The notes under the pieces were generated by a model. It had not been told where the DNA came from, ran no database searches, and was given only the letters and a program-made list of their open reading frames with translations. From Periconia sp. R9002 (taxonomy: Eukaryota > Ascomycota > Dothideomycetes > Pleosporales > Periconiaceae), in assembly GCA_023627715.1 (NCBI GenBank), contig JAMAHW010000012.1, positions 248,001 through 312,000 of the forward strand: a stretch of DNA of 64,000 nt, in the 5' to 3' direction. The translations under genes and the position numbers were made by a program. Shown in pieces: positions 24,799 through 62,721 of the stretch (positions within the stretch are counted from its first letter, which is position 1; each line of letters opens with the position of its first letter).

Positions 24799-24806
24799 TG
24801 GCTGAC
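24799..24806 (+). promoter_or_regulatory. TGGCTGAC element, P450 promoter
   Basis: Exact TGGCTGAC 147 bases upstream of the P450 start, with a weaker GCGCTGAC 15 bases before it. One of the intergenic copies that mark the cluster. The rest of 24653-25404 holds no gene I can recognise. Confidence 0.6.
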
Positions 24807-25404
24807 AGGACTGTGCCCCTGTTGACAGATACGTCATAGTCTGAATTTCGCATCATGATGTTTTTTGGGTAATTCGACAGAAGGCGGGGTTTTCACGGTA
24901 AACCGGTGTGTTGATTCACCACATAGGTACATCAATTGATACTTATTTGGGGGATTGTAGGTACTGAACCTTCAAGCTCCCGATCACGTGACACTCATTT
25001 ACCTTCATCCACATGTGTACATCCACTGGTAGACAGGGACGCTCCACTTGACTTATTCATGTTGAAATACTGTGAAAGATTGATATCAATCACTTTTTTG
25101 CGTTTGATATGTATCTTGGATGAGGATCAATAATCGAAATTAAATTCCTCGCGAGGTTTTTCGACGCGTCGTAGCGCAAATGTATCTGTAGACTGATAGA
25201 AGTAGTGGAAAAAGTCAAGCACGGGGTTCAGAATGAAACCCTTTTTATCTCAAAATGGCCGTGAATTTCTCTGAAAATAGAGCACTGATATGGTATATGG
25301 CAGGGTAGAAAGTGCATACATATTTGTGACAGCAAGTGGCTAAAAACAATCCTGACTAGCGGCGGAGGCGAACAACGTGAATAACAAAGGCGAACTTCAA
25401 CATC

Positions 25405-26814
25405 CTATTTTACAACCCGCATATTGTATAGCTTCTCCATCAGTTCTTCCATATCCTTTCGAGTTTTTCCGCCCACTAGCAATCCACAGGCGCTCCATGT
25501 AAACAACGCTCCAGGTCCGCTTTTCCCTCGACACCACGAAGCAATTACTATCGTACCATCTTGGATTTCTGTTGAAAACTTCTGCTCAAAATCTTCGCGA
25601 GTTCCGAGTATTCCCAGTGGAATCAGAACACCAGCGAACGGTAGATTGCGTTGCTCGTAAAAATGCTTCTTCATTAGGCCTAAGGTGTAGCTTCCTGTTT
25701 GACGTACATTCATATCCACAATGAGCTGTTGACCGTTCTTGTTCGTCATAACGTCTACTCCCATGGGTCCATAGTAACCGCGTGAAAAAACGTACGCAGC
25801 CACCTTGTCTATTATGTCTCTGTATTTTTCGCCTAGGGCAGTCTGACGGGTGTAATCCATGTACCCGCCGGACCATTGGCCGCGGCCATCTAGGATTTGT
25901 TCCGATGTGCTGATATAGTATGGGCGGCCCGCTTTCGTAATAAAGATGGAGACTCCGTCCGATGGTCCGTCCACCAGGTCCTGCAGCAGTAGGCTGACAG
26001 GGGTCTTGGCTTCGTTCATGGGTGTCAGCGCCTGAAACATGGCTGGTAATTCTTCACGGAGTGTCACTAGACAACTCTGACGCTGCTCCTCATTTTTGAC
26101 AACGAACACTGCATGCCCTCCCATTCCCAGCGGCAGCTTGACAACGAAGGGTAATGGAATCGAAGCGATAGGTTCTAGCATCCGATCAATTTCGTTTTGC
26201 AGCGCCACCTCATCATCTTTATCAGCAGCGCGGAGGATAGTGTCGATAACTTGAGTAGGTGGGCTCGGAAGATCTGAAAGTGCTAGTGTGCGTTTGCTCA
26301 GTAAATCCCAGTGCGCCTCTTGATCCACCAAGGGGCCATGTCCATCGAGGAAGTCCATGGGTGTGATGACGGCTTTCCGCTTTTCTAACACAGCAAGTTC
26401 ATCTGAGTGGTCGATGAATCTCAATCTGGGCTGCTGAGATGGCTTCAAGCTCTGGAGTACAGTCCGCGCATCGGATTGGTGCCAGGGCTCCGGCTTGCTC
26501 CAGCTGAACGTTTCAGCTAGCTTCTCCATTTTAGTCTTGTCGAGATTGAAGAGGTACAGGTCCATTTGTCCAGCAACAAAGCCATAATATTGTGCTAGAC
26601 AACTAAGTGTTATTCGGGCCAGCGTATCAGGCGCCCATTTATGGGTTCGAGGTCCTTGATATGCGTATTTGCGGGATACAGGCAGTGAACCTGCGACTCG
26701 TGTCGGGTTGGGAAAAGCATATGCGAGGGCGACATCGTCGCTATTTCCTCCATCCAAAGAGTAGAGGTCCGCAAGGGTCGTGGGAAGTTCAATCGCAGGT
26801 GCAGTCAATTTCAT
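25405..26814 (-). CDS. ATP-grasp domain ligase (paralogue A)
   Basis: Predicted ATP-dependent carboxylate-amine/thiol ligase of the ATP-grasp fold, of the type annotated in fungi as solid-state-culture-specific ATP-grasp protein. Single exon, 469 residues, ATG at 26814. Landmarks: PFVVKLPLGMGGHAVFVVK (ATP lysine K226 and glycine loop 230-233), QDLVDG after the hinge, GPMGVDVM (D354) and the metal-binding VDMNVRQTG (D367, N369, R371). It is a clear paralogue of the gene at 43044-44459: same length, the motif residues offset by one position, and shared opening DLYSLDGG. It faces the ABC exporter across a 443-base promoter with two TGGCTGAC elements. A likely job is joining an amino acid or amine to the cluster product; that is inference. 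Confidence 0.85.
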   Translation of the reverse strand: MKLTAPAIELPTTLADLYSLDGGNSDDVALAYAFPNPTRVAGSLPVSRKYAYQGPRTHKWAPDTLARITLSCLAQYYGFVAGQMDLYLFNLDKTKMEKLAETFSWSKPEPWHQSDARTVLQSLKPSQQPRLRFIDHSDELAVLEKRKAVITPMDFLDGHGPLVDQEAHWDLLSKRTLALSDLPSPPTQVIDTILRAADKDDEVALQNEIDRMLEPIASIPLPFVVKLPLGMGGHAVFVVKNEEQRQSCLVTLREELPAMFQALTPMNEAKTPVSLLLQDLVDGPSDGVSIFITKAGRPYYISTSEQILDGRGQWSGGYMDYTRQTALGEKYRDIIDKVAAYVFSRGYYGPMGVDVMTNKNGQQLIVDMNVRQTGSYTLGLMKKHFYEQRNLPFAGVLIPLGILGTREDFEQKFSTEIQDGTIVIASWCRGKSGPGALFTWSACGLLVGGKTRKDMEELMEKLYNMRVVK

Positions 26815-27027
26815 AGTGTGGGTGATTGGCGAATTTTGGAGGAACTAGAAACGGGGTGTTCGTTGACGATTTCAGTATTTTGGTTCCATGTAAGCATTGA
26901 GAGAAAAGAATTGAAACTGCTGTTCTCTACATTTGTAATGAACCTATAACCTATGAAAGCTCCAGCAATTGTCTGATTTGTTACATATGCCAGCTAGTAA
27001 CAGGTCGCGAGACACGTGGGATCGACA

Positions 27028-27106
27028 TGGCTGACAACAAAATCCGATGATCTTAGCGAAACAATGGCCGGCCTCATACGTAATTGCGGCTATGCTACTG
27101 GCTGAC
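27028..27106 (+). promoter_or_regulatory. Two TGGCTGAC elements, ATP-grasp A / ABC exporter
   Basis: Exact copies at 27028-27035 and 27099-27106 in the 443-base divergent promoter; 214-285 bases from the ATP-grasp start and 152-223 from the ABC start. One shared region could drive both genes. No other gene in this gap. Confidence 0.6.
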
Positions 27107-27257: not shown

Positions 27258-30200
27258 ATGCAACGTAACGATACCGCGACAACAGACCTAAGTGTTAATA
27301 CAGGCCTCAGTTTCCAATGCATTGGGGCCCAGAATGATGCCACCGTACCGGAATCCGGTCCAGATTCGGTATGGTCAAAAACGCTGGCGAATTCTTCTGT
27401 AGGGAGCCACACACGAAACACATCAGAGTCAAGTTTTTGCAAAAAGAGTCTCAATTCACAACCGGCATCGCCAACTACACGGGATACAGACACCACATTC
27501 CACAAGGATCAACAACATCCCAGGAAACAAACCGCAGAGGTGGATGCAAACTGGTTTAGTAAGCTCATCTTCGAATGGACATCAGGGCTACTGCGGGTGA
27601 GCTTGGTAGAATCAGCGATATTTTAACATACGAACTGACAACCGCTAGAAAGGGTACAGAAAGCCACTCGAGTTACACGAACTACCCCTCGTACACCCAG
27701 AGCGCCGTGCGCAGCCTTTGGTAGATGTCGTGCATGGTGCCTTCGATAGGAACTTTCGGGCAGGACATACACACGCATTGTTCTGGGCATTATATGAGTG
27801 TTTTAAAAAAGAATTTTGGATTGGCGGAATTTGCAGAGGTCTGGCCGACATCCTACAGGTCATCACGCCCTATACATTGCGATACCTGATTCAGTTTTCT
27901 GTGGACACTTACGTATCGCATCTCTCAAATAGGCCGGGACCACCGTTATGGCATGGTATCGCCTACTTATGTGGGATCATCAGCATGCTCGTGATACAGA
28001 GTCTTACTCACAATCACTACATGTATTTACTGGGTGTTATTGGAGGACAATCGCGCGCGATTTTGACATCGGCTATCTTCGAAAAGTCAGTGAAAGTTCT
28101 GGGTAAGGGTCAAATCTCAGATCAAGACGTATTCCCCGAAGATAGTGGTCAGAAGAGTCAAAAGGCGACGCATGAAGATTCTACGACCAGTCAGGTGATA
28201 GGCTTCTTATCTTTTGATTGCGCCCGGATAGCTCAGACAGCTAGCGCACTTCACGTCCTCTGGACTGCTCCTTTATCACTGGTGACTGCCCTCTCTCTAT
28301 GTGAGTCTTGCAATTCCTCGTGTAAGCAGCAGCAGTACTGACATGCATCAGTGATCGTCAATTTACGAGTGAACGCACTCGCCGGTTTTGGTGTACTCGT
28401 TTTGGGGTTTACTGCGCTCGTTCTGGGGGTCGGTATTCTCTTCCGGCAGAGAAAGAGTACGGAAAAAAGTGCAGAATCGCGTGTCTTCCTTACACATGAG
28501 GTACTGAACGCTATCCGCCCAGTCAAATTCTTTGGTTGGGAAGAAGGGTTTGCGCAGCAGATCAGGGACATCCGCGCTATAGAGAATCGCAAACTCAACT
28601 CGTACACTGCAGTCAAGAGTGCGGTAGGAGCGCTCTCCCAAGGGCTGCCGGTCTTAGTCGCCATGATCTCTTTCATCACGTACGCACTGACCCATTCTGG
28701 CCTCTCTCCGGCTATTGTATTTTCATCCACCGCCCTCTTCACAAGTTTGCGCATGCCGCTTATCTACCTTCCTCTTTGCATTCAAGCATGCAAGGATAGC
28801 GGTGCGTCCATGTCGCGGATTCAGGAATTTTTGAGCACCCCTGAGATCAAGGAAAACGAAGTCGATCCAGCACTTGACGCCGCTATTGAAGTGCATCACG
28901 CTGAATTTGTATGGGAAGATGCGAGGGAATCTAACACATCAGTCGAAGCTAGTAAGGATAAGGGATCCATCGCTGTCGCATTGCCTACGGAAAACGTAAC
29001 CAAAACACCATTCTGTCTTCGGGATATTGACCTGACAATCGAACGCGGAGAGCTCCTGGCTGTGATAGGAAGTATTGGGTCGGGCAAAACATCATTTTTG
29101 TCAGCACTCGCTGGCGACATGGCCAGGATATCTGGCACAGTGCGATGGGGCGCCTCACACGCTCTTTGCCCGGAGCAACCGTGGATGCTCAACGGCACGG
29201 TTCGCGATAACATTCTGTTCGGACATCCATTCGAGCGACAATGGTACAGTGCCGTCCTGAAAGCTTGTTCACTGTCCAGGGATCTTGATTCGCTTCCCCA
29301 CGGTGATCAGACAGTTGTCGGAGAGCGCGGCGTCGTCCTCTCTGGCGGTCAAAAACAACGCATCAGTCTAGCCCGCGCAATGTACTCAGAGAAAGATGTT
29401 ATCCTCCTTGATGACCCCATCAGCGCTGTAGACGCCAAAGTTGGGCGTGCTATCATGGATGACGCTATCTGTGGCGACATCTTGTGTAGAAAGACCCGCA
29501 TCCTATGCACGCACGACATGAGCGTCCTCCATAGGTGTGATCGTATCTTGTGGTTGGAAAACGGAATGATACGATTTCTGGGTAATTTTTCAGATCTTTT
29601 GCAAAACAATCCCGAGTTCACTAGTGTCAGTTGTGCGCCGAATGGCGATCAACACTCTGATCCCCTCAAAGTTTCGGGCGGCAGTGAAGAGGGTCCGGAC
29701 CTCCACGATAACGTAGACGCAGATGCGGCCGACACTTTAATTCAGGATGAAGATCAAGAGAGTAGATCGGTATCGTGGAGAGTTTACGGATCGCTGTTCG
29801 TAGCTCCAGGCAGCGCTTTCTTTGCCATTGCGGGCTTCCCTTTGCTTCTTGTGGGGTCTGGATGTATGGTCCTGGCACAGCTTTGGCTCGCGTGGTGGAG
29901 CTCCGGCCGCTTTGACATCCACAGAAACATCTACATATGCATCTATGTGGCGCTTGGCTGCGGCCAAATTCTCTTTCTCTATTTGTTCGGGGTTTTGACA
30001 GCATTTTGCTGCACGCGCGCCAGCCAAGTATTGCTCAACAAAGCAGTAGCACGCGTCTTCCACGCCCCCACCCACTTCTTCGACTCGACACCTGCCGGTC
30101 GATTGACGAATCGGTTCTCGTCTGATGTCGAGGCTATGGACTACCACTTACCCGAAGCTTTGCGGATGTTCTCGATTTCCATATCGGGGCTCATTGCGCT

Positions 30201-31833
30201 ATTCGCACTCGTTATCGCTTATTTTCCTTGGTTTGGAATCGCTGTCGGCGTTCTCATCTTCATTTTGGTGTGTTTAGCCATCTATTACCGCTCCACTGCC
30301 CGTGAGGTCAAGCGGCACGAATCCACTTTCCGCTCTGTTATGTATACGCGATTTGTCGAAGGCATATCCGGTATCTCCACGCTGCGGGTCTTTGGAATGC
30401 ACCCATACTTTTCGCAAAGGCTCTGCGAGGCTGCAGACGATCTCAACAGCGCATCTTTCACTAATTTTGCTGTGCAAAGGTGGCTAAGCATTCGACAAGA
30501 TGTCGCTGCAATTCTGTTGGTCACTGCTATGGGCGTCTTGGTCTTGGTGAACCGCCAGTCGCAGGACCCTGCCATCTCTGGCCTGGTCCTTAGCTTGATG
30601 TTATCTGCAGTACAGATCATCCAGGTAGTCGTACGAGAATGGGCAGACGTGGAAAGCGCCCTCAACTCGACCGAACGCCTCTATGAATATGCTCATAATA
30701 TTCCCCAAGAACCGGACGACACTGTTGATCGTCCTGACGAAGGCTGGCCCAAGAATGGACAAGTTGAGTTTGCAGAGACACGTATGCGATACCGCCCTGG
30801 CCTTCCAGAAGCACTTAAAGGAGTCAATTTGCGTGTCAAGGGCGGCGAACACGTAGCTATTGTAGGGCGCACAGGTGCGGGAAAGTCATCCATCGTAAAT
30901 GCTCTCTTCCGATTGACGGAACTGTCCGGCGGATCTGTCTCGATTGATGGAAAAGATGTTTCTCGAGTCTCGCTCCAAGATCTACGAAAGCATGCATTAT
31001 CCATCATCCCACAAGAGAGGGCTCTGTTCGCAGGAACCATACGCAGTAATCTCGATCCGTTTGACGAGCTCCCGGACTCAGAAATCTGGGAAGCACTCAA
31101 AGGGGCCGGCCTAGACCGAACCGTTCACCCGAGTGACATTGTACAGGAAGAGGGCACGAACTTTTCCCTAGGCCAGAAGCAGTTACTTGCAGTTGCACGC
31201 GTCTTGACGAGAAAGAGTCGCATTGTGGTGTGTGATGAGGCAACTGCAGCATTAGACGCAGAGACAGACGACCAGATCCAAGCCACGATGCACCGCGCCT
31301 TTCGCAATCGCACTGTTCTCTGTATCGCACATCGGCTGCGCACGGTTCTTTGGTATGACCGTATTTGCGTGATGGAAGCAGGTCAAGTGGCAGAACTCGA
31401 CACGCCACTTCGTCTTTACCAAAAGCAGGACGGTATCTTCAGGGAGATGTGCCTGAAGGTCGGTATCACTGAGGAGCAGATTATCCATGCTGCACAGCTT
31501 TCCCGCACAAGTGTTAAGACGCCGCTCCTCGAACTACGCCTACCAGGTTCGAAGATTGAGGTTGATTGGGATAATCTCACGTCTCCAACGAGCACATACA
31601 AGAGATTTTCCGAATGCTCAGGCGACGTGGTAGCGTTTTCCCCCACGATATACGAAAAGGAGGAAGAGAGGAGGACCAAGCCGAGACCAAGACCCAGAAG
31701 TAAGCTGCCACCCAAGAGGATGAGAAGCTTGCGGAGTAGCAGTATCTATTCTGAGAGTGTTTTGAGTTGGTCTGAATTAGGTAGTGTGTTGGAGCGTGAT
31801 CGTGTTGTTAGTAGTGTCTATGAAATGATATAG
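27258..31833 (+). CDS. ABC transporter, ABCC/MRP family (Yor1-like)
   Basis: Full-size exporter (TMD-NBD-TMD-NBD), about 1,490 residues, plasma or vacuolar membrane. ATG at 27258; two introns (27597-27648 and 28301-28351), with phase-consistent junctions that restore WTSGLLRKGYRKPLELHELPL and SLVTALSLLIVNLRVNALAGFG. NBD1 has Walker A GSIGSGKTSF (about residue 570), signature LSGGQKQR and Walker B VILLDDP, where Asp replaces the catalytic Glu. NBD2 has GRTGAGKSSIV, a variant signature FSLGQKQ and IVVCDEAT with Glu. This asymmetry (one degenerate, one competent site) is usual for ABCC proteins. The C-terminus is a basic, Ser-rich tail. Shares a promoter carrying two TGGCTGAC copies with ATP-grasp A, so it probably exports the cluster product or gives self-resistance. 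Confidence 0.92.
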
Positions 31834-32285: not shown

Positions 32286-33502
32286 CTAAGACGGAGCTGA
32301 CACTGTTTGCCTGCGATCTGCTGTCCGATAAATTAATTTCTCCCCTCTCACTTTGCCCTTTCGTAGGAGCGCCACTCCATCAAGCAATCCCTCAAATCCA
32401 TCTGGCTCGATACGGATTGGATGCGACATCAGCTCACCAGACTCAAAGATCGGATTCAAGTAAGGCCAGATGGCGCGTTTGAAGTCCGCGCACTCAGCTT
32501 TACCAGGCGTACCAAATGGCTCTGGCCAGCTGATTGGTAGGCCTCGAAGATGCGTAGCAAGTACCCAGTCAGGGCTGACAGTACGACGCGTAGCGGATTG
32601 TTCCGGGTAGGGCTCAAGACCAACGTCTGTGATTTGTCAGTGACTGACTTTCATGGTGGTTTCCACAACGTACACTTTCCACCACAACGACCTATGGCTT
32701 GATAGCATATCTTCATGGTCTCCTCTTCCGTGATACAATCGAGCGCATACTCAAGCGCGTTGTTCGTAAAAGCCCTGATATTTTCTCCACAACTAGGTTC
32801 ATGGTAGTCGAAGATTTCATCAGCGCCATACGAACGGACCAGGTCATTGCTATGAGGCGAGCAAGTGGTAATGACTCGCGCACCCATGCGCTTTAGGAGC
32901 TGTATCGCGAAAGTGCCCGTGGAAGTCGCACCGCCATACACCAGGATATCAAAAGGCTTTTCAGCAGGCTTCCTCAGCAATTCCATAGGTAGCTGGAGGG
33001 AGTAGAAAATAGCCATGGCTGATGTTGCGATGCGCAATGGCATACCGGCGCCTACCTCGAAGCTCATGTCCTCAGGCATTTTGAGCGCCATGATGCCGTC
33101 AACGGAAGTATATTCTGCAAACGCACCCGACTGTGGTCGGAGGGCCTCCATACCGTCGCATGCTCCACACACTCGATCTCCTAGTTTTATGCGGCCTTCA
33201 GACGCTATGTCTTTTCCCATGGCGACTACAGTACCGGAGCAATCAATCTAAAAACATCGGTCAGAGCCGAGATAGTTCATGCGACCACCATCTCAACTTA
33301 CACCATAGTTGGCACCAGCTCCCACAAAGGGACCAACCATCTTCGTGTCCACGGGATTTAATCCCACATATTCTGTTTTGATGATCACACAGTCATCTGC
33401 AATAGGTGGCATTGGAAAATCATCTCGGATAGAAAAGTCAAGTTCATCGTTTGCGACGACAGCGCGCTGGGTTTTCGGTAAATCGGGGATTGAGAGCGCC
33501 AT
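32286..33502 (-). CDS. Trans-acting enoyl reductase (MDR family, LovC-like)
   Basis: NADPH-dependent medium-chain reductase of the type that works in trans with highly reducing PKSs and PKS-NRPSs whose own ER is dead. ATG at 33502; three exons, with introns near 33248-33304 and 32604-32667 (the second donor read as GTACGT, joining GGK to YVGLEPYPEQ). Landmarks: N-terminal LPKTQRAVV and EYVGLNPVDTKMVGPF, IDCSGTVV, GDRVCGACDG, and the cofactor loop LVYGGATSTGTFAIQLLKRMGARVI. About 365 residues, as for LovC/TenC/ApdC-type proteins; no zinc-binding pattern is seen. The partner is presumably the PKS-NRPS at 49760-61305, where the ER region shows no cofactor motif. Three TGGCTGAC elements lie upstream. 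Confidence 0.9.
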
Positions 33503-33703: not shown

Positions 33704-33827
33704 GTCAGCCACCACTCCTAATGCATACGACGGTATGGGGGCTGATCCAAGCCTCTTTGTTTCTCTTCGTCTCCTACAAAAACCATGTGTGCACCGTGCG
33801 GGATAACCTGGCTGACCTGTGGCTGAC
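33704..33827. promoter_or_regulatory. Three TGGCTGAC elements, enoyl reductase promoter
   Basis: Minus-strand copy at 33704-33711 and plus-strand copies at 33809-33816 and 33820-33827; the last two start 11 bases apart, about one helical turn. They lie 200-320 bases upstream of the enoyl reductase. The rest of 33503-34086 has no gene. Confidence 0.6.
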
Positions 33828-34086: not shown

Positions 34087-34940
34087 TCAGCGTCGCATCT
34101 TCGGCCAAGTTTGTCCTTCCCCCTGCAACTCATACCTCCTATTATGTTCCTTAACGGTTCCAGGTGGGGTCATTAGAATTGCAACGCAGCAAACTGCCAC
34201 GAAAGCCATCTCGGGGAGCATCGTCATTAGCAAATATGCCGTCGGACTGCCCTTCACTGCGTTCCACATCATATCTGCAGTGATGACGAAGATCGCACTG
34301 TACAGAATGCGGACAAAGAGAAATGGCAGGCCAATCCCCACGCCTACAGCTAGTGTATAGTGTTCCCAGTCATATCGCCGACGTTGCATCCAAAAGTACA
34401 CCCATACGCTCAGGGTGTAGACGTAGATCAGAAACAGTATAGCGATGCTGGCGCGAGACCACGGCGTAGGCAGGAGTTTGTTGTGCTCTTTCTGCGTGAC
34501 GGCGACCATTCCACCGATAGAAATGCCGATATCGATCCAAGTCAATAGCTGCGGAATCCAGAAGACCCGGTCATGAACGACACGCACTGATTTGTCTCTG
34601 CTCATGCTATCAGCTTCTTGTGCTCATGCATACAAATGTGTGTCGCACGCAGCACATACATTTTGGTGAGCATTTCCAACAACGTAAAAACCAAGAGCAG
34701 CACCCCCAGGCTCTCACACACAAATACGCCAGCCCACAGTCCGCTAGAGTCGCGATTTATAGTGCCCAGCATGCACCCGGCACCCACGCATCGTATAAGC
34801 GAAAACCCACCCAGAGTGTACCAGCATATACGACGCGTCCTGCGAAAGTAGTATCCCACGAAAAATGAGACTGAAAAGAGCAAGAGCTGGACGATGGCGA
34901 TTGCGTCGCGATAGCGAATCTGGCCGTTGCCGCTACCCAT
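34087..34940 (-). CDS. DUF7702-type integral membrane protein
   Basis: Fungal multi-span membrane protein of unknown function resembling DUF7702 proteins. ATG at 34940 (MGSGNGQIRYRD); one intron near 34613-34665 with a phase-2 junction. About 265 residues with seven hydrophobic segments, for example AIVQLLLFSVSFFVGYYF, VFVCESLGVLLLVFTLLEML, IAILFLIYVYTLSVWVYFW and MAFVAVCCVAILM. The seven-span layout and opening RYRDAIAI are typical of the family. It may act in transport, sensing or protection; nothing in the sequence decides. A TGGCTGAC element lies 215 bases upstream, so it is probably co-regulated with the cluster. Confidence 0.8.
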
Positions 34941-35154: not shown

Positions 35155-35162
35155 TGGCTGAC
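35155..35162 (+). promoter_or_regulatory. TGGCTGAC element, DUF7702 promoter
   Basis: Exact TGGCTGAC 215 bases upstream of the DUF7702 start. The rest of the 870-base gap 34941-35809 contains no recognisable gene; it also carries the 3' flank of the bZIP-like gene. Confidence 0.55.
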
Positions 35163-47986: not shown

Positions 47987-48766
47987 CTAATTGCGTCTAT
48001 CAAATAGAGATAACAGTTCTTCTTCATCTCGCAGCTCTCGGTAACTCTGCGCTTTGCTCGCATCATCTACTCTGGCAATCAAATTCGCCAACTTAATCAC
48101 ATCGATCCTCGATCTTGGCACGACGTGGCCGTCCCGATAATCCATCGTCTCTGTGTTTTCCTTTGCACATAATTTCCGCAACCTCTTTCCTTCATCATAC
48201 CACACGTCTTTTAACCCAGAAGCCTGAACAGTATAACCGGGGAATTTGAGGTCCTCCCTTCCCAGGGCTGATGATAACGAAGTCAACATCTGTTCCACTT
48301 GATCTAACTGTTCCGTATTGCCACTGGTGTTTGCTCCAATCGATACCACAAATCGCAGATTCGGAAAGTAAGAAAGACCCAGGAGCCTCAGAGAGAGCAT
48401 GGCTAAAGATACCATAGCGCCCTGGCTAAAACCTAGAAGAGCAACCACGTCCTCGGCCTTCACATTCTGATCATCCAATTCCGAGCAGATGTACTTTGCT
48501 ACACCTAGTAGCTCGGTGGCGCGCAACGACGAAGATAGGTTAGGTGCAAGCCACCTATAGTAATTCGGCATGTCGGCGAAGAATGGTAGTACGCCGGGTC
48601 CCGGAGCGCTTGGTATAGGTGCGTCAATTCTGACAAGGTCGTATGTCGCTGACAGGGATCTTGCGAGAGTGTGTGTTTGGATGCCGAATATGTCAGAAGA
48701 GCTGCCGGCGCCGTGCAGTAGAAGCATGACGGGCTTCTTGGTTTTTGTTTTGACGTTGCGCATCAT
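47987..48766 (-). CDS. FSH-type serine hydrolase (LovG-like)
   Basis: Alpha/beta serine hydrolase of the FSH1 family, 259 residues, intronless, ATG at 48766. Landmarks: LLLHGAGSSSDIF (oxyanion strand), nucleophile elbow LLGFSQGAM (S114), D187 in GLKDVW and H214 in RDGHVVP, completing the triad. In lovastatin and related pathways, FSH proteins release the polyketide from its carrier domain by hydrolysis. Here it is divergent from the PKS-NRPS across a 993-base promoter with TGGCTGAC elements, and that synthase lacks a built-in release domain. Off-loading the product or editing stalled chains is therefore a reasonable inference. It could instead be a tailoring esterase. Confidence 0.88.
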   Translation of the reverse strand: MMRNVKTKTKKPVMLLLHGAGSSSDIFGIQTHTLARSLSATYDLVRIDAPIPSAPGPGVLPFFADMPNYYRWLAPNLSSSLRATELLGVAKYICSELDDQNVKAEDVVALLGFSQGAMVSLAMLSLRLLGLSYFPNLRFVVSIGANTSGNTEQLDQVEQMLTSLSSALGREDLKFPGYTVQASGLKDVWYDEGKRLRKLCAKENTETMDYRDGHVVPRSRIDVIKLANLIARVDDASKAQSYRELRDEEELLSLFDRRN

Positions 48767-49169: not shown

Positions 49170-49258
49170 AGGCTGACCCAAGACGTCTGGATGGGGTAGA
49201 AAATAGGGCAAAAGTATGGTGATGGCTGACAGTATCGCTGACACGCTTTATGGCTGAC
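49170..49258 (+). promoter_or_regulatory. TGGCTGAC elements, FSH hydrolase / PKS-NRPS promoter
   Basis: Exact copies at 49223-49230 and 49251-49258, plus one-mismatch copies TCGCTGAC at 49235-49242 and AGGCTGAC at 49170-49177: four in 90 bases, all in one orientation. They lie about 500 bases before the PKS-NRPS start and 400-490 before the hydrolase. The rest of 48767-49759 holds no gene I trust. Confidence 0.65.
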
Positions 49259-52700: not shown

Positions 52701-55700
52701 CCAGGGCTACCACCGAGCTTTTGCCAAGAATGCCATCTTCGAGATCTCCAAGGCACTCCCTACGTATTCCTGGGACCATGAAAAAGTTGTTTGGAACGAA
52801 TCTCGTGTCTCCAAGACGCATCGACTGCGAACTGAAACCAAACATGAACTTCTTGGTGTTCGGTTGTCAGACGAAGTCGAAGGTGAAATGCGATGGAGGA
52901 ACTATTTGAAACCACAAGAGATGCCGTGGTTGACTGGCCACAACATCCAAGGTCAAATGGTTTTTCCTGCAGCAGGTTTTGCCACTATGGCCCTCGAGGC
53001 CGCGCGTAACCTTGCACCATTCGAGTCTATCCGTCTCATGGAGCTACAAAAGTTCAGCATACATAAGGGACTGTCGTTCTTTGATAAGAACAGCAGTGTT
53101 GAGATCATTTTTATCCTATCTAACATCTTGGAGCAGCACGACGTGATAACAGCTGACTTTGCCTGCAATGCCTGTCTTAACAAGGATGCTGGTGACTTCT
53201 CATCTATGGCCAGTGGTAAAGTATCGTTGACTATTGGTGAGCCATCCAAGGATGCGCTCCCTGAGAGGCCACATTGGCCCAACAATTTCATTGACACAAA
53301 CGTCGAGTACTTTTATGAGGAGTTGGCCAACCTCGGATACGGCTATCAGGACATGTTCCAGGGTATTACTGAACTATACCGAACGAACAGTGGTTCTAAA
53401 GGTATTCTTAACATTCCGCAGGACCCAGAGTCGGCAGTACAGAATTGGGTTATTCACCCAGCTACTCTGGACGTTGCTTTTCAAGCCGTTTTCGCTGCAG
53501 TCGGTGTAAGTCCACCCATCAGATGCTTCGTTTGTGAAAGCGAACTCCCCTCTCTGGATATCCATTTGCTGACAGTTTAATCGCAAATCAGGCACCTGGA
53601 GATGGTAGGCTCTGGACACTGCACGTCCCAACAATGATTAACAGCATCACTGTGAATCCCAGAGCGTTTAAAGATACCTCGGGCATCGAGACTTCTCTTC
53701 CCTTTGATGCGTGCCTTGTCGATGCTATTGATGAGGGTATTGCTGGGGATATTGATGTCTACGAAGAAGATGGAAAACAAACTGTTGTGCAGATACAAGG
53801 ACTAAACGTCACACCCCTGACGAAGCCAACTCCAGATGACGACCGAGAAACGTTCGCTGCCATAGAGTGGGAGCCGGCTCAACCCGACCTTATCACTGGC
53901 TGGACTGAGGCCAAGCCCACTGCTGATGAGGAGAAGATCGCCAACTTCGCTGAGCGATTGTCGCTTCTGGTCCTTCGTGACCTTTGCAACGAGGTCGCCA
54001 TGGATGATCTAGGCACAAATGGAACAGACAATCAGCGTGCTTTCATTTCCTGGGCTGAGCACATAATTGACACAGTCCGTGCCGGAGAACATCCGACGTG
54101 CCCTAAACAATGGCTGGCCGATACCTGGGAAGTCCTTCAGGAACCGGCAGAACGGTTTGCCCCTCTGAATTCTCGGGTACAAGCATGCCTCCAAGCCAAG
54201 GACCGCCTCGAATTATTCCTCAAAGGGAAACTATCAGTCGACGACACTGTATCCGACCACGCTTTCTTCTCCAGTATTCCCTTCTATCAGGTTTACGTCG
54301 AGCGCTTGATTGATTTGGTTAAACAGATCAGTTTCCGACACCGCAATATGAGAATACTAGAGATTGGTACTGGAAGCAGCTCTCTCGCGACAAAGATACT
54401 GAGCTCTCTCGGTGACAACTTCACATCATACACCTGCACCAACATGGATGAGGCTCATTTCGGCGAAATACGCGCTCAAATGGATGAATCTTACTCTGAA
54501 AGGTTACAGTCTATGGTCCTTGATCTCGAAGAAGATCCGATAGAGCAAGGCTTCAATAAGGGCTACTATGATTTGGTGCTCGCGGGGAATACTTTACACG
54601 ATACACGTGATCTTCATCAGTCACTGGCTCATATCCGCTCCCTTATGCGCCCTGGGGCTCATCTCGCGTTCCTTGAGCTCACTAGTAACGAATCGCTTGC
54701 TGTTGCGCTTGAGGGGTGCTTAAGGTTGAATTGGTTCGCTGGTATTGAAGAACAGCGCAAGTATTCCCCGCTTATTTCTCAACAGGTGTGGGATGACTTC
54801 CTCCGCGATGCTGGATTTTCAGGAATCGATACTTCCACACCCGAAGAGCGCAATTTCACTGTTCCGTTCTCTGTCATGTGTTCAATGGCCACAAACGAAG
54901 AGATGGACTTCATTCGAGATCCCTTGGCATTGACTGGACAAAAGAAGTTCAAAAACAACCTGCTTATCATCGGAGGAGCCACAATGCGCACTAAGCAGCT
55001 TGTTCGAGGCCTGGAGAAAACTCTAGGTCCATTCTTCCAGGACGTGTTCCTACACGAGACTATGGTGGGAGTTGATGCTCAGATAATAGAATCAGTGCCC
55101 ACCACTATCAATTTGGCTGAGCTCGACGAGCCACTTTTCAAGCCCTTCACGGAAGAGAAGTTCAAGGCGGCCGTGAAGATTTGCGATAATTTGCAGAGCA
55201 TTCTGTGGGTCACGGCAGGTAGCCGAGGAGAAGACCCATACATGAGCATGATGACAGCAGTCGGCCGTTGTTTGGAGGGGGAGATGCCCAATCTTCGGCT
55301 ACAGTTCCTCAACTTTGATGGCAACGACCGACCCACTCCTGAGACGTTGGCCTACCACTTGCTTCGGCTACACATCACACACGATTTCAATGCTCGACCG
55401 GGCATCAAGAAAGGTGGAGAACCGCTCTACACCATAGAACGTGAATTAACGATTCAAAATGGCACTTTGCTCATTCCTCGTTACATCTTCTCCGATACCA
55501 TCAACACCCGTCTCAACTCTGACAGGAGGCTTATCACCCACGATGTCAATCAAGACACCACAGCTGTGGAATTGGACACCTCCAATCCGGCTTATAAGTT
55601 ACTCGAACGCGACCTGGATGGAGATCACGAGTTATTCAAAAATTATCCAGCGGATATCCGTTCAATCAAGGTTACTGTCACCAAGGGGCTACTCAATGCA

Positions 55701-58700
55701 ATCAAGATCAACACGTCAGGCTGTTTCCACGTCGTTTTAGGTCGAACTGCAGAGGGTAGAAAGGTCATTGCCTTGTCTGAGCACAACCAATCCCTCATAT
55801 CGGTTCCCGAATCGCACGTTGTCGAAGTAGAGGTTGAAGATGATAGTGAAGAGAACTTGCTGCTGCAGGTTGCTGCCGAGCTGTTGGCTGAAAGCATTCT
55901 TTCGGATGCCGTTGGATCTGTTCTCGTCCACGAGCCTTCCCAAGCACTTTCAAACAGTCTTAGCGGACTTTGGCATACTGGTAAAGCTGTTGCAATGACG
56001 TCCACATCGTCCACTGTTCGTGGCGCAACAGTCATACACCCATCTTCCCCAGACCGCGCACTGGCTCGAGCTGTTCCTCAAGATACGAAACTCTTCGCAG
56101 ACTTCTCTAAGAGTGAATCTCGATTCAAGAACTTCCTTCCGATGGGCTGCACAACGAAAAACACAACAGATTACATCAGCCCTAGCGCCCAAGCTATCGG
56201 CGCCGTCAATGCTAATGTTCTTCCGGCCGCTGTGAAGCGCGCATATCTTTCTTACAGGCGCCGAACTGAAGAGCTAGATATCACTCTTGCCTCACAAATT
56301 TCCGAGAAACCTATCGGCTCTCTTGACTTCCAAATAGTGGACTGGACCGCCGACAAGACTTTACCGGTCGCAGTCGAGCCTGCCGATGTATCCATCCAGT
56401 TCCGTTCCGACCGGACCTATTTCATGGTTGGGATGGCCGGAGAGCTTGGTCTCCAAACAATCAAATGGATGGTGTCCCGTGGTGCGAAGTTCATTGCCCT
56501 ATCATCAAGGAACCCCAAAGTGGACGCCGGGTGGCTCGAATACATTGCTTCTCAAGGCGCCACGGTCAAGCTATACGCCATGGATGTGACAAGTCGCGAT
56601 TCTGTCCGAGCCGTCCACAAGCAGATCTGTGCAGAAATGCCACCTATTGCTGGTGTCATGAACGGAGCCATGATTCTCATTGATGCTCTATTTTCCAACA
56701 ACGACTTCGCCACATTCGACAAAGTCCTGAGACCGAAGGTCGACGGCACCGTTTACCTGGATGAAGTTTTCAACAAAAATGATCTTGACTTTTTTATTGT
56801 CACGTCGTCTCTCGCTTCAGTGTCCGGAAACATTGGACAAACCGCATACGCTGCAGCGAATGCTTTCATGTGTAGTCTTATTGCTGGTCGCCGCATGCGT
56901 GGACTTGCTGGGAGCGCTTTAAATATGCCGGGTAAGAACATCGCCTATTTCATATTGACCTCTACTAACGCAGCACATCTAGGTATCGTGGGTCTCGGCT
57001 ACTTGAACCGCGACCCTCGCAAACTTTGGCGTCTCAAGAAGATTGGTTATGTCAACATCAGCGAGTGGGAGTTCTTCCAGTTCTTCTCTGAAGCCATTGT
57101 AGCTGGCCGTCCAGACTCTGGCTTGAACCCCGAAATCACAGCAGGACTACAACGGAGCGATGTCTCGAAAGTTGAAGATCCCCCACATTGGTTTTTGACT
57201 CACCGATTCTCAACTTTGCACAAGGTCCCTGCAGATGGAGCTGCCACCGACAGCAACAAGGATGTTGCTTCTCTTCGAAACAAACTCGCCGAGCTGACCA
57301 ACGAAAAAGACGTCAATAGCACTATCTTGGAAGATTTCATCCAAATTCTGTGTATGCGACTGAACATAGACCCATCGTCTGGTCAGGTTACTCCTGATAC
57401 TTCCATTGTTGAATTGGGCGTCGATTCACTGCTTGCGGTAGATATTCGCGCGTGGTTTACAAAAGAACTGGATCTCGATATGCCTGTGCTCAAGATCCTC
57501 GGAGGTTCCACCGTACAAGAGCTGGTCGATGATGCTTTCGGCAGACTGGAATCTAATCTGGTGCCAAAGTTGGCTCGCGATGGCGAAAATTCGACCGCAT
57601 CGGGAGAGCAGCTGGCCAGTAAGGACGACTCAACTACAGATGTTGCGAAGGCTGAGAGCATTCCCGTTGAAGACAACTTCTCAGCTGAGGAGCCGGCAGA
57701 AGAAGTGCTCACTATCGCCCCTCTCGATCTTCCGACCATCGAACAAGTCGAGGAACCTTCTACGGACGCCGCTCAACCAGGCTGGAGTACTGCAAGCTAT
57801 TCACCCTCATCTCGTGGTGATGACTCCTCTGGGGATGTAGAGCCAAGCTCAGGAACGCAGACTCCTATGACTGAAGCCACAGACTCGGAGCCGAATGAAC
57901 TAAAGCATATTGAAGAGGATATGTTCCAGGAAGACGTTGCGAGAGAAAAAGATACGTCGGAACAGGGCGAAAAGCCAGCTGCTAAGCTCTTCTCCAGACT
58001 GCCCGACCGTCCCAAAGGAGAGCTCGAGTTCATCAAGAAAACACAGATGTCTCACGGCACATCACGCTTCTGGTTCTTGATGCAATACCTCCAAGACCCT
58101 ACTTCCTTCAATCTCTTGGCTCATCTCAAGTGTACAGGACACATTGATTTGAAGACTGCTGAAAAAGCCATTCGCGAACTTGGCAACCGTCATGAGATTT
58201 TGCGCACGGCTTTCTTCGCCGATGAAACGCGTGGGAACGAGCCAACAATGGGCGTCCTGAAAGAGTCACCTCTACAACTGGAACATCGTAGCCCGGTGAC
58301 TCAGGGTGACATCGACGCCGAAATCGAGGAACTTTTGAACTACGAATTCAAGCTGGAGCAAGGCGAGACGATTCGGGCGAAAATCCTGTCTCTGGACGAG
58401 AACACGCATCACGTTTTGTTTGCTTTCCACCACATTGCTATGGATGGATTCAGTTTCAATATCATGCTTGCCGAGGTCAATCAGCTTTACGACGGCCAGA
58501 AACTAGCCCCCGTTAGTTTGCAGTTCACGGACTTCGCCGAACGCCAACGGAAGCAAATTGCGGATGGTAGTTTTGATGGTGAATTCCATTTCTGGAAAGA
58601 CATGTACAGCCAGAAGTTGCCATCAGGAGAGACCATACCAGACTTCCCAGAACCACTTCCTCTATTCAACCTTGCCCAGAGCACTCGCAAGAGCCTGGAC

Positions 58701-61305
58701 AACTACGAATTTGAAGAGTCCTCGGTTGTGCTTGATTCAAGAATTCTTCGCCAAATCAAGACTCAGTGTAAGAAGTATAAAATCACTCCTTTCCACTTCT
58801 TCCTGGGAGTCTTGCGCACCTTCCTTTTCAGACAACTCGATGTCGACGATCTTGTTATTGGAATTGCTGATGCAAACCGTACCGATGACTCTGTCGCAAG
58901 CACTATCGGCTTCATGCTGAACTTGCTTCCTCTGCGCTTCAGAAAGGATGATGGCGATCAAAATGTCTCTTTCAAAGATATCGTATCTGAAGCTCGTAAA
59001 ACTGCTTATGATGGGCTGGCTCATTCTAAGCTCCCCTTCGATGCTCTATTGGAAAAGCTCAACATTCCTCGCTCAGCTACGCACAGCCCTCTGTTCCAAG
59101 TCTGGATGGATTACCGACCATTCCGACCTGACTACATGCCTACCATGTTTGGTGGCGAGGCAAGTGGTGATCAGACTGTCGGTCGCAACGGTTATGATCT
59201 CACCCTTGATATTAACGAAATCGATGGTTCTGAGACACGCGTATCATTCCGCACTCAGAAGTATCTCTATTCTGCAGATGCTACGCAGGCATTGTTTGAT
59301 AGCTACATGAGGTTGGTGAGGAGTTTTGCTAATGACTTTGAGGTGCCGATTGGTTCCGTTTCTTTGTGGGAGGAGAAGGATTTGGAGTTTGCAAAGACTC
59401 TTGGGAAAGGTGAGTAAAAAATTCCCATGACTGAAAAAAAAAGAGTGAAGCTAACTCTCTCTTCTAGGACCGGAGCTTGAACTCGAATGGCCCGACACCC
59501 TCTCTCATCGTATTGCCGACATTGCTTCCTTATGGCCAGACAAGGAAGCTGTCAAAGATGGTAACGGCAGGTCATGCAGCTATACCCAGCTCCAACACCG
59601 CGTACAAGCTATCAGCGAAGCTTTAACTCTATCCGGAGTGACGCAGGGCTCCCGAGTAGCTGTCTTCCAGCAAGCTGGAGTCGACTGGGTGTGCTCGCTA
59701 CTGGGTATCTGGCATGCCGGAGGTATTTACATCCCAATGGACCTCAAGAACTCGCTCCCTCGTTTAGCAGCCATTGCCGCAGCCGCAAAACCTGCAGCAA
59801 TCCTCTGCCATGACGAGACTGAAAACCTGGTTCCAGAACTCAATTCTTCCGCATCACACCTTGTGAACGTCTCCAGTTTGCAGCACGCGCAACCAATCAC
59901 AAAGGTGCAGGCCAAATCAAATGGTACTGCCGCCATCTTATTCACCAGCGGCTCGACTGGTACTCCAAAGGGTGTAATGCTTCGCCATTCAGCTTTCCGA
60001 AACACCATCGAAGGATTGATCCGGCAATATTCCATAGGTGCCGAAACTGTGCTTCAGCAGAGCGCCTTTACTTTTGATTTCTCGCTCGACCAGATCATGT
60101 GCGGTTTGGTGAACGGTGGAACAGTATACGTGGCAACAAAGCAAGATCGCGCAGATCCAGTTGCCATAGCAAAGATCATCGCGAGCGAGAACATCACTTA
60201 CACCCGTGCCACTCCTTCGGAATACGCTAGCTGGATTACCTATGGAGCTGAACATCTTTCCAACGCTTCCAGCTGGAAATTTGCTTGGGGAGGCGGTGAG
60301 ACGATGCCGCACTCCCTACTGGAAAGCATTGCCGGACTGGGACTTGGGGGTCTTCGTCTCTACAACTCTTACGGCCCAGCTGAAAGCATCACTTGCACTA
60401 AGACCGAAGTACCACTTCATTCGAATCCTGATATTGGCCTGAATGACACCGATGTTCCCGCTGGTTATCCTCTTCCGAATTATTCAGTATACATTGTCGA
60501 CCGCAATCTCGATCTAGTTCCACAGGGATCAACTGGCGAGATCTTGATCGGCGGTCCCAGTGTTTCCGCGGGCTATCTGAATCAAGAAAAACTGTCCGCA
60601 TCCAAGTTCATCACCAACCCCTGGGACATGGGTATCGTTTACCGAACCGGCGATATTGGATACCTCCGCTCAGATGGCGCCCTCATGTTCAAGGGACGTA
60701 TCGCCGGAGATACCCAAGTCAAGATCCGCGGAATCCGTATTGATCTCCAAGATATCGAGTCCTGCATTCTTGAGGCTTCCGACGCTGCACTACACAAAGC
60801 CATCGTGAGCGTCAGGGACGGTGGCGTGCTGGTAGCTCACGTACAGTTCGCGGACGGTCAGTACGACGACGAAGTATCCCAGAAAGCCTTCCTGAGGCAA
60901 ATGCGCTTCCTTCTCCCGCTGCCAGTCTACATGATTCCTTCTGTGTTCGTGCCAGTCGACCAGTTGCCCGTCAACAGCCACGGGAAGACGGACCGCCAAG
61001 CTGTATCATCCCTGCCACTCCCAACTGCACATGGCAACACCGAAAAGCGCTCCGAGGAGGAGCTTAGCGAGACAGAACGCAAGCTTGTTGAGATCTGGAG
61101 GGAAGCTGTGCCCGAGGAGATGAAGGGGTCCATGCTGCCAAACAGCCAGACGAGCTTCTTCGAGCTTGGAGGAAACAGCTTGTTGCTTGTTCGTCTGCAG
61201 AGAGCTGTGAAGAAGGAGTTCGGGGTTGAGCTGGGTATTATTGACTTGTTTGAGGCCAGTAGCCTGGGGGCTATGGCGGCAAAAATTGAGGTTTCCATGG
61301 AGTAG
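49760..61305 (+). CDS. Hybrid PKS-NRPS, highly reducing, no terminal release domain
   Basis: Core enzyme, 3,695 residues, making a reduced, possibly C-methylated polyketide joined to one amino acid. ATG at 49760. Seven exons give a continuous frame: 49760-50162, 50215-50504, 50611-50761, 50867-53505, 53592-56931, 56983-59409, 59468-61305. Domains: KS (DTACSSS, C176; EAHGTGT); AT (GHSSGE, S647); DH (H973 in TGHNIQG; Asp in [10 protein letters not shown]); MT near 1418 with an altered motif I, EIGTGSSS; a region with no ER cofactor motif; KR (VGMAGELG near 2106; Y2247); ACP (S2423); an acidic Ser/Thr-rich linker; C (HHIAMDG at 2757); A ([12 protein letters not shown] near 3242); PCP (S3654). 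It stops 41 residues later with no reductase or Dieckmann domain. The trans-ER and FSH hydrolase nearby would supply the missing reduction and release steps. Confidence 0.95.
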
Positions 61306-61704
61306 TTAGTCATTTCTTTCTTTTTCGTCGGTTTAGGGTCTCGTATATTGCAAATTTGTTTCTGCTCTATAGTTACTGTCGAGAATATTATTCATAGATG
61401 GAGTTCGTATATTAAATACATTTGGATTATTATAATTACTTTGTATGCCGCACAAGTACTAAGATTTACTATGGACTCTGCCAGTTGGCTATGGTTCTAG
61501 CTGCATGTCTAGGAACCTTTCGGTCAAAAGTAACAAATTTGCCCTTAACGATAATAAAAAAAAAGTTAGGTAATTAGTTGATACTTGATGTGTGGCTCAT
61601 TTTTCGTGAACCACTGGGCTTTTCGACCCGCCGAGAGGGATGCCGCATTTAATCTATCTAAAAAGATTGTACAGACTTGTGGTGATGAATTACCGCCTTC
61701 TCAT
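61306..61704. other. Convergent intergenic region, no gene recognised
   Basis: About 0.4 kb of AT-rich sequence after the PKS-NRPS stop and before the 3' end of the metallo-hydrolase. I see no reductase-domain remnant in it: frames after the stop are short and AT-rich. Confidence 0.5.
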
Positions 61705-62640
61705 CTATGCCGCTGCCCCGAAGAATGCTTCCGCCGAGTCTCGCAGAACGACAGATCCAATCCTATCCGGCCACCTTGCTTTCGCCAAAGCTTCCAACTC
61801 CTCCCATGTCTTCGCCTTCGAAACCAGTTCCCCCCAGCCCCTAACATAATCCTGTGTCTCTTGCAAGTGTTCAGGTCCAAACCCCTCTTGTTCTTGTGCG
61901 TGTGAGGGTACAACAACCTTAGGCTTAAGCGCTTTGACCTTGTCAAGGGATGCTATCCATTGGCTTCGAAGCTCTGAAGTAAGGTTTTCCACGAGCCACT
62001 GGTAGCAGTGTCCATAAACAACGTCGCCTCCAACCACAAGATCGATACTCGGGACATACATTACTGTCGAGTCTGTAGTATCACCCTCGCCAACCAGGAT
62101 CGCGCGGAACTCGAATTTTTTGTTTGACTTTCCATTGATAAAGAAGTTTTCTGAGTCAGGGAGTTGATGGACCAAGGAAAGATTGGCTTGCTGCACATTG
62201 GGAAATAAACCTTGCCAGACATGCCAGGTCGGAGGCTCATATTGTATGGGTAGATGATCAACCACTCCCTTGGTAGCGACGACCTGTGCCTTGGGAAACT
62301 TCGCCAGAATTTGCGGGAACGCGTTGAAGTGGTCGCCGTGTGCATGTGTGATATACACATACTTCAACGTCTTACCAGGTACTGTCTTGGAGATCCAGTT
62401 CGCAAGGTCGGTGGCGTCTTGAGCCACAATAGGCGCATCGATCAGCACAGCCTCGGTTGCTGAGTGGATGAGGGTAAACTTTTGCGGCGACCAGAAGAGG
62501 GAGGCGTTTTGAAATTGCACGGGTTTAGACGCTAGGTGGTAGACATCCACCTGAAGCTCGTCATTGTCGTAAACGCGGCGAGCAGCTACGTGCTGGGTAA
62601 GAAGAGAAAAAGCTTGCACGAGGATGAGGAACCACTTCAT
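61705..62640 (-). CDS. Secreted metallo-beta-lactamase-fold hydrolase
   Basis: Metal-dependent hydrolase of the metallo-beta-lactamase superfamily, 311 residues, intronless, ATG at 62640. The N-terminus (WFLILVQAFSLLTQHVAA, residues 3-20) is a signal peptide, so it is probably secreted or vacuolar. The metal motif is THAHGDHF (H99, H101, D103, H104), with a later Asp in VVGGDVVYGH and a C-terminal His in VVVPSHAQEQ. Cytosolic relatives release products of non-reducing PKSs as thioesterases; the signal peptide makes that unlikely here and favours lactone or ester cleavage outside the cell, such as product maturation or detoxification. A TGGCTGAC element lies only 74 bases upstream, placing it in the cluster regulon and at its right edge. 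Confidence 0.85.
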   Translation of the reverse strand: MKWFLILVQAFSLLTQHVAARRVYDNDELQVDVYHLASKPVQFQNASLFWSPQKFTLIHSATEAVLIDAPIVAQDATDLANWISKTVPGKTLKYVYITHAHGDHFNAFPQILAKFPKAQVVATKGVVDHLPIQYEPPTWHVWQGLFPNVQQANLSLVHQLPDSENFFINGKSNKKFEFRAILVGEGDTTDSTVMYVPSIDLVVGGDVVYGHCYQWLVENLTSELRSQWIASLDKVKALKPKVVVPSHAQEQEGFGPEHLQETQDYVRGWGELVSKAKTWEELEALAKARWPDRIGSVVLRDSAEAFFGAAA

Positions 62641-62713
62641 GTTGAGTTGATTTTGTAGTTTTTTATTGTGAGGTCGTCGTTGGGTTTATATACCGTGAAA
62701 TGGCTTTGGCGCA

Positions 62714-62721
62714 GTCAGCCA
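62714..62721 (-). promoter_or_regulatory. TGGCTGAC element, metallo-hydrolase promoter
   Basis: Exact copy on the minus strand, 74 bases upstream of the metallo-hydrolase start. It is the rightmost copy in the window. Confidence 0.55.

What the first reader, a model, noticed from the sequence alone, without database searches (positions are those of the whole stretch)
24799..62721. A TGGCTGAC element marks nearly every promoter of the cluster
Reading both strands, I find 16 exact copies: 23432, 24799, 27028, 27099, 33704, 33809, 33820, 35155, 36723, 39628, 42666, 42726, 46034, 49223, 49251 and 62714 (start positions). An 8-mer is expected about twice on both strands of 64 kb (2 x 64000 / 4^8). 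Fourteen are intergenic, one is in a P450 intron and one in the bZIP coding sequence; none is seen before 23.4 kb. They lie upstream of the P450, both ATP-grasp genes, ABC exporter, enoyl reductase, DUF7702, SDR/2EXR, FSH hydrolase/PKS-NRPS, metallo-hydrolase and, further off, the ADP-ribosyltransferase-like gene. This looks like the binding site of a pathway regulator and sets cluster limits of about 23.0-62.7 kb.
Basis: partly seen in the sequence, partly recalled or inferred. Interest (0 to 1): 0.88.

Follow-up and report, generated by a model that had tools for sequence, protein, structure and literature searches.

The report
Shared promoter switch of fungal cluster
One short DNA word sits in front of every gene or gene pair of a fungal natural-product cluster, far more often than elsewhere in that genome on average, so it is very probably the docking site of the cluster's own regulator, which may also control a second cluster elsewhere in the genome.

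Summary
All 16 copies of TGGCTGAC are where stated. The 42.9 Mb genome holds 1,424, or 2.1 per 64 kb; 15 of the 16 lie within 25.8 kb, where 0.86 are expected. Fourteen lie in promoter regions: 9 of 9 such regions carry the word, 0 of 6 regions behind gene ends do. It is strict, non-palindromic and followed by A in 10 of 14. The P450-intron copy is probably a branch point; the coding copy is at chance level. Best explanation: the in-cluster regulator (35810-37225) reads TGGCTGAC(A) and switches the cluster on. It has a bZIP basic region but no leucine zipper, like XanC, whose site AGTCAGCA shares the core GTCAGC (PMC8406171). Binding is inferred, and conservation in orthologous clusters could not be tested. 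A new lead: contig C194 holds a second biosynthetic locus with the word in three promoter regions, and relatives of the regulator lie with C194-type ATP-grasp genes in five other fungi. Known in kind, well supported, with an interesting two-locus possibility.

The parts
24799..24806 (+). TGGCTGAC(A), 146 bp upstream of P450 start codon
27028..27035 (+). TGGCTGAC(A), shared promoter ATP-grasp A / ABC exporter
27099..27106 (+). TGGCTGAC, shared promoter ATP-grasp A / ABC exporter
33704..33711 (-). TGGCTGAC, promoter of enoyl reductase
33809..33816 (+). TGGCTGAC, promoter of enoyl reductase, first of tandem pair
33820..33827 (+). TGGCTGAC(A), promoter of enoyl reductase, second of tandem pair
35155..35162 (+). 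TGGCTGAC(A), 214 bp upstream of DUF7702 gene
39628..39635 (-). TGGCTGAC(A), 433 bp upstream of the ADP-ribosyltransferase-like gene (2.4 kb upstream of the bZIP gene)
42666..42673 (+). TGGCTGAC(A), promoter of ATP-grasp B
42726..42733 (+). TGGCTGAC(A), promoter of ATP-grasp B
46034..46041 (-). TGGCTGAC(A), shared promoter SDR / 2EXR protein
49223..49230 (+). TGGCTGAC(A), shared promoter FSH hydrolase / PKS-NRPS
49251..49258 (+). TGGCTGAC(A), shared promoter FSH hydrolase / PKS-NRPS
62714..62721 (-). TGGCTGAC, 73 bp upstream of metallo-hydrolase start codon
23432..23439 (-). TGGCTGAC in P450 intron, a few bases before the AG acceptor: probable branch point, not counted as a regulatory copy
36723..36730 (+). 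TGGCTGAC inside bZIP coding sequence, chance level (2 copies outside promoter regions, 1.05 expected)
35810..37225 (-). in-cluster regulator, bZIP-type basic region without leucine zipper, 455 aa, one intron (37057-37104)
22981..24652 (-). cytochrome P450
   Evidence: PF00067
25405..26814 (-). ATP-grasp enzyme A (PF02655)
27258..31833 (+). ABC transporter
32286..33502 (-). enoyl reductase type (ADH_zinc_N), separate from the PKS
34087..34940 (-). DUF7702 protein
40069..40650 (+). small ADP-ribosyltransferase-like protein (PF01375, 26 bits)
43044..44459 (+). ATP-grasp enzyme B, 39% identical to A
44821..45817 (-). short-chain dehydrogenase
46380..47567 (+). 2EXR family protein
47987..48766 (-). 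FSH1-type serine hydrolase
49760..61305 (+). PKS-NRPS hybrid ending in an A-T pair with no release domain seen
61705..62640 (-). metallo-beta-lactamase-fold hydrolase

Best explanation
TGGCTGAC(A) is the cis-regulatory box of this PKS-NRPS cluster. The cluster's own regulator, a bZIP-type protein with a basic DNA-binding helix but no leucine zipper (35810-37225), binds it in either orientation, mostly 70-530 bp upstream of the start codons. In this way it turns on the enzyme, transporter and accessory genes together. Shared divergent promoters are served by one or two boxes each, and the regulator's own near promoter has none. Shown: the word, its concentration in this cluster against the whole-genome rate, its promoter placement, and the regulator's gene and domain anatomy. 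Inferred: that this protein binds it, that the effect is activation, and that the regulon extends to the second locus on contig C194.
For: Present in 9 of 9 promoter regions (14 copies in 9,457 bp, 0.31 expected) and in 0 of 6 regions behind gene ends. With its one-base-shifted form GGCTGACA it is the most enriched 8-mer; the 9-mer TGGCTGACA occurs 10 times against 0.2 expected. 15 copies in 25.8 kb against 0.86 at the true genome rate; among the 100 places listed (C1 to part of C4, 3.5 Mb) the densest 26 kb holds 5. Bases outside the 9-mer show no shared pattern, so the copies are not duplicated promoters. The regulator gene is the only match of its family found in the genome, with its own sequence and with a distant member as query, and no other transcription-factor gene turned up among the cluster ORFs scanned (not every ORF was scanned). 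In the 15 rows in which a basic region could be matched (own protein and 14 of 21 homologues) no zipper is seen: at most 2 of 4 heptad positions hydrophobic. A non-palindromic site fits a zipperless protein. XanC, also without the typical zipper leucines, works through AGTCAGCA (reverse complement TGCTGACT, core GTCAGC); mutating it cut xanB expression by about 90%, and it is in five xan promoters but not in those of xanC and xanD (passages of PMC8406171). Apf2, also zipperless, shows the same layout with TGACGTGA, absent from its own promoter (passages of PMC4109984).
Against: No binding or expression data. The word in the wide bZIP/ART region (1 copy in 2.8 kb) is not significant by itself (P 0.09), and those of P450, DUF7702, SDR/2EXR and the metallo-hydrolase are single copies (P 0.02-0.04 each). 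The nine regions were drawn by me from my own gene models. GCTGAC is also the fungal branch-point consensus (recalled). The word differs from the XanC and Apf2 sites, and homology to XanC could not be tested.
Confidence: 0.72

Rival explanations
1. The word is a real shared promoter element of the cluster, but is bound by a different, unlinked or global factor (for example another bZIP or a stress regulator); the in-cluster protein acts elsewhere or as a partner.
For: No binding data. The regulator lacks a zipper and may need a partner. Genome-wide there are 1,424 copies, some near genes unlike this cluster (by eye: C52 upstream of an MFS-transporter-like ORF, C21 upstream of a malate-dehydrogenase-like ORF).
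Against: The dense run lies in the cluster that holds the only match of this regulator family found in the genome, and the core GTCAGC is that of the XanC site, read by another protein without the typical zipper leucines.
Confidence: 0.22
2. The copies are intron branch points (GCTGAC fits the fungal consensus RCTRAC, recalled) in 5' untranslated introns, not DNA-binding sites.
For: Copy 23432 sits just before the AG of a P450 intron.
Against: The boxes of the P450, DUF7702 and ART genes, and two of three of the ER gene, are antisense to the only gene whose start they precede. Five of the 14 have no YAG within 32 bases downstream (27099, 33809, 35155, 49251, 62714).
Confidence: 0.02
3. The copies descend from duplicated promoter segments or a mobile repeat and have no regulatory meaning.
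For: Many copies in one region.
Against: No shared bases in the 8 positions on either side beyond a following A; copies lie both ways round and in promoter regions.
Confidence: 0.02
4. Chance or a compositional effect.
For: The word has a 1.5-fold excess genome-wide over its reversed control.
Against: P 3e-14 at the actual genome rate, about 6e-10 after a rough scan correction; 14 of 16 in promoter regions.
Confidence: 0.01

Closest known systems
XanC of the xanthocillin cluster, Aspergillus fumigatus (PMC8406171; abstract, outline and passages seen)
   Same: In-cluster bZIP-type regulator without the typical zipper leucines; an 8-base site in the promoters of the regulated cluster genes but not in that of the regulator itself; core GTCAGC shared with the present word (GTCAGCCA against AGTCAGCA). 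Its P. expansum orthologue acts on a second cluster (citrinin).
   Different: The site is a different word (the exact XanC word occurs once in these promoters, 39553); a different pathway (isocyanide). In P. expansum the orthologue did not switch on its own cluster, and reached citrinin through ctnA, whose promoter lacks AGTCAGCA. Sequence homology of the two regulators was not tested.
Apf2 / ToxE (bANK regulators; Api-box TGACGTGA, Tox-box ATCTCNCGNA; PMC4109984, passages seen)
   Same: Basic region without zipper, box in cluster promoters including single boxes in divergent promoters, none before the Apf2 gene itself.
   Different: They carry four ankyrin repeats; none was found here. Different words.
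BIP1 of Magnaporthe oryzae (TGACTC, ACE1 PKS-NRPS cluster; PMC10833574, passages seen)
   Same: bZIP regulator acting on genes of a PKS-NRPS cluster through short boxes.
   Different: BIP1 has a leucine zipper, its site is GCN4-like, and by its locus number it lies outside the ACE1 cluster (inference).
Fumisoquin/fumipyrrole-type loci (PMC8395729, PMC10342363, PMC12568646; passages seen)
   Same: Some relatives of the C194 ATP-grasp enzyme bear the source name fumipyrrole biosynthesis protein C.
   Different: That pathway is listed with a Zn2Cys6 regulator (FsqA/FmpR); here a bZIP-type protein is the candidate. Direct homology to FsqD was not tested.

Membership tests
cluster-specific cis element with in-cluster regulator | word enriched in cluster promoters against the genome | tested here: met
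cluster-specific cis element with in-cluster regulator | regulator gene inside the cluster | tested here: met
cluster-specific cis element with in-cluster regulator | regulator binds the word / expression depends on it | not testable with these tools
   needs EMSA, DAP-seq or gene deletion
cluster-specific cis element with in-cluster regulator | word conserved in orthologous clusters | not testable with these tools
XanC-type regulators | bZIP basic region, no typical zipper | tested here: met
   (basic region NRIAQQKHR, N-x7-R); models the P. nodorum orthologue, helix 23-50
XanC-type regulators | site AGTCAGCA in cluster promoters | tested here: not met
   one copy in the nine regions; GTCAGC core shared
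XanC-type regulators | sequence homology to XanC | not tested
bANK (ToxE/Apf2) | four ankyrin repeats | tested here: not met
   no Pfam family at E<=1
canonical bZIP (AP-1/CREB type) | leucine zipper heptads after the basic region | tested here: not met
   at most 1 of 4 heptad positions hydrophobic in the window protein
PF28575 family | match to PF28575 | tested here: inconclusive
   21 of 21 homologues carry PF28575.1; the Pfam copy used for the own protein gave no match and may lack the model
intron branch point | sense strand, shortly before an AG acceptor of a real intron | tested here: not met
   met for copy 23432 only; antisense to the gene or without a near YAG for many others

The most novel reading that the evidence does not exclude
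One zipperless bZIP-type regulator, reading an asymmetric 9-base box, runs a single pathway whose genes are split over two unlinked loci: the PKS-NRPS / dual ATP-grasp cluster on C12 and the PKS, NRPS, ATP-grasp and dioxygenase locus on C194. The regulator family travelled between these two kinds of ATP-grasp clusters during evolution, so TGGCTGACA can be used to find the missing parts of the pathway.
Probability: 0.22. Interest if true: 0.72.

Novelty: new member of a known kind. Interest (0 to 1): 0.5.

Why it matters
It gives a family of zipperless bZIP-type regulators (homologues carry PF28575; those with a name are called hypothetical or uncharacterised proteins) a concrete, testable DNA word. 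It delimits a PKS-NRPS cluster with two ATP-grasp enzymes and no release domain seen. It also points to a second locus that may belong to the same regulon. If the site of such regulators is GTCAGC-based in general, as in XanC, one could read cluster borders and split pathways directly from sequence in many fungi.

Tried and rejected
Chance (rejected on the real genome count). Branch points (rejected for most copies; kept for 23432). Duplicated promoters (no shared flanks). Relaxed one-mismatch forms (not enriched). Known fungal words TGACTCA, TTACTAA, TGACGTCA, TTACGTAA, TGACGTGA, TGCTGACT and CGGN6CCG (recalled, except the XanC and Apf2 words): at most two copies each in the nine promoter regions.

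Close pairs of the word outside the window: 7 places (same strand within 30 bp: C3, C6, C21, C194; 31-61 bp: none; 62-92 bp: C10, C124; inverted: C52; the divergent arrangement: none). C3 and C6 lie in long ORFs. C21, C52, C10 and C124 showed no biosynthetic core gene by eye in the ORF lists (not scanned against families). C10 and C124 also have three copies within 1 kb, so close copies alone are not decisive; C194 stands out by its genes and by separate promoters. The local run on C3 (7 copies in 64 kb) lies in stop-to-stop ORFs of 140 residues or more.

A tree of 33 C194-type ATP-grasp rows (the own enzyme plus 32 that I chose of the 120 listed homologues) puts the own enzyme in a fully supported subgroup of 8 with Trematosphaeria, Lindgomyces, Clathrospora, Alternaria and three unnamed rows. 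The five regulator-linked enzymes are related but not in that subgroup, so the linkage is to the wider enzyme family; this weakens the C194 argument. The structure of the regulator's P. nodorum orthologue is confident only for the basic helix, residues 23-50 (mean pLDDT 49.5), so no fold search was made. Paper searches for the word (listings only, 20, 15 and 10 rows seen of 1,721, 44 and 16 papers) showed no report of it as a fungal cluster box; this is not proof that none exists.
Full report
Observation. TGGCTGAC occurs 16 times in the window at exactly the positions given. Fifteen copies fall in 25.8 kb (0.86 expected, P 3e-14, about 6e-10 after a rough correction for scanning). In the 100 genome places that were listed (C1 to part of C4, 3.5 Mb spanned) the densest 26 kb holds 5; positions in the rest of the genome were not listed. 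The 50 kb left of the window hold 2 copies, the 60 kb right of it 1. The 9-mer TGGCTGACA has 386 copies in the genome, 10 of them in these promoters.

Position. I set gene starts from ORFs and introns judged by eye. Nine regions contain a promoter: P450; ATP-grasp A with the ABC exporter; enoyl reductase; DUF7702; bZIP with the ART-like gene; a small hypothetical gene with ATP-grasp B; SDR with 2EXR; FSH hydrolase with PKS-NRPS; metallo-hydrolase. All nine carry the word (14 copies in 9,457 bp, 0.31 expected). Six regions behind gene ends carry none, not even the core GCTGAC. The two copies left over are near chance for the remaining 31.6 kb (1.05 expected). Boxes lie 73 to 529 bp from start codons, except for the small hypothetical gene, which would share the ATP-grasp B boxes at 673 and 733 bp. 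They face either way and have no shared flanking bases beyond a following A in 10 of 14. GGCTGACA and TGGCTGAC are the two most enriched 8-mers of these promoters. The regions were defined by me after seeing the gene models; the weakest single case is the wide bZIP/ART region (P 0.09).

What it is not. GCTGAC is also the fungal branch-point consensus (recalled), so I tested this. The copy at 23432 lies just before the acceptor of a P450 intron and is most likely that intron's branch point. Boxes at the P450, DUF7702 and ART genes are antisense to the only gene that they precede, so they cannot be branch points of its leader. In the neighbouring 133 kb the word is rare in non-coding proxy DNA: 1 site in 57 kb, against 14 in 10.8 kb inside the cluster. 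In a small sample of 7 sites from contig C1, 4 were in non-coding proxy, so the word is not confined to coding DNA elsewhere.

The candidate reader of the box. The gene at 35810-37225 encodes a 455-aa protein with a bZIP basic region (AAKEKRKIQNRIAQQKHRRRMKEQ) and no heptad of leucines. I found 21 homologues, all with PF28575.1; the nearest named ones are from Ophiobolus disseminans (77%) and Parastagonospora nodorum (72%). The source fungus is therefore probably a pleosporalean (inference). In the 15 rows in which a basic region could be matched (own protein and 14 of 21 homologues; the other 7 are partial or differ there) no zipper is seen, at most 2 of 4 heptad positions being hydrophobic. 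A predicted structure of the P. nodorum orthologue is confident only for this helix, residues 23-50. No second gene of the family was found in the genome, whether searched with the own protein or with the distant member from Pleomassaria. The regulator gene has no box within 2.4 kb upstream, as reported for Apf2 and XanC.

Closest known case. XanC lacks the typical zipper leucines; its site AGTCAGCA was found in the promoters of five xan genes that it regulates, and mutating it in the xanB promoter cut xanB expression by about 90% (PMC8406171, passages). The present word read on the other strand is GTCAGCCA: the same GTCAGC core with a different end. The exact XanC word occurs once here (39553). 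I take this as support for the class of reader, not as membership. The ankyrin repeats that define the ToxE/Apf2 class were not found.

A second locus. A search for close pairs of the word led to contig C194 (19.8 kb). It carries a fungal-rhodopsin-like gene, an NRPS (A-T-C), a 2OG-Fe(II) dioxygenase, an ATP-grasp enzyme, an SDR and a highly reducing PKS cut by the contig end. The word lies once upstream of the rhodopsin-like gene, twice in the NRPS/dioxygenase promoter, once in the ATP-grasp/SDR promoter, and once in the NRPS coding sequence. Leaving out the pair that was used to find it, two copies in 1,339 bp of promoter (339 bp plus 1,000 bp that I allowed upstream of the rhodopsin-like gene) have P about 0.001. 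Against this, C194 is one of seven close-pair places outside the window, and two others also hold three copies within 1 kb.

Support for C194 from other fungi. In two others, Clohesyomyces aquaticus and Lojkania enalia, the regulator shares a contig with relatives of the window's own ATP-grasp A. For the other nine of the 16 named genomes with the regulator no such partner was listed (Ophiobolus, P. nodorum, Aaosphaeria, three Biscogniauxia, Camillea, two Apiospora); the lists were limited (120 of 132 shown, and candidates capped). In a tree the own C194 enzyme groups with Trematosphaeria and relatives, for which no regulator homologue was listed. I put co-regulation of C194 at about 0.55 and one common product at about 0.22.

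Verdict. The kind of thing is known; the word, the family of its likely reader and the second locus are new leads.

Noticed in passing
contig C194 (loci L037, L034, L036): A second biosynthetic locus (NRPS A-T-C, ATP-grasp with relatives named fumipyrrole biosynthesis protein C, 2OG-Fe dioxygenase, SDR, HR-PKS cut by the contig end) with TGGCTGAC in three promoter regions.
   Followed up: partly
49760-61305: The PKS-NRPS ends in a T domain at 61305 with no reductase, Dieckmann or thioesterase domain seen; the FSH hydrolase or the metallo-hydrolase may do the release (inference).
   Followed up: no
25405-26814 and 43044-44459: Two ATP-grasp enzymes, 39% identical; homologues also lie close together in lichen fungi (for example Puttea exsequens 005857 and 005860), so the pair may be old and conserved.
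   Followed up: partly
35810-37225: The regulator family has an invariant CxC-x6-C-x2-H motif (C125, C127, C134, H137) between basic region and C-terminal domain, possibly a metal site.
   Followed up: no
40069-40650: Small protein with a modest match to PF01375 (ADP-ribosyltransferase fold, 26 bits) inside the cluster, with the box 433 bp upstream.
   Followed up: no
whole window: TTTGCAAAA, close to a palindrome, occurs 9 times in the window, the second most frequent 9-mer.
   Followed up: no
C52:57674-57706 (L038): Inverted pair of the word, ending in TGGCTGAGTCAGCCA, upstream of an ORF that looks by eye like an MFS transporter.
   Followed up: partly
9354-11006: A Zn2Cys6 regulator gene between ORFs that look by eye like sugar transporters, left of the cluster and without the word.
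   Followed up: no
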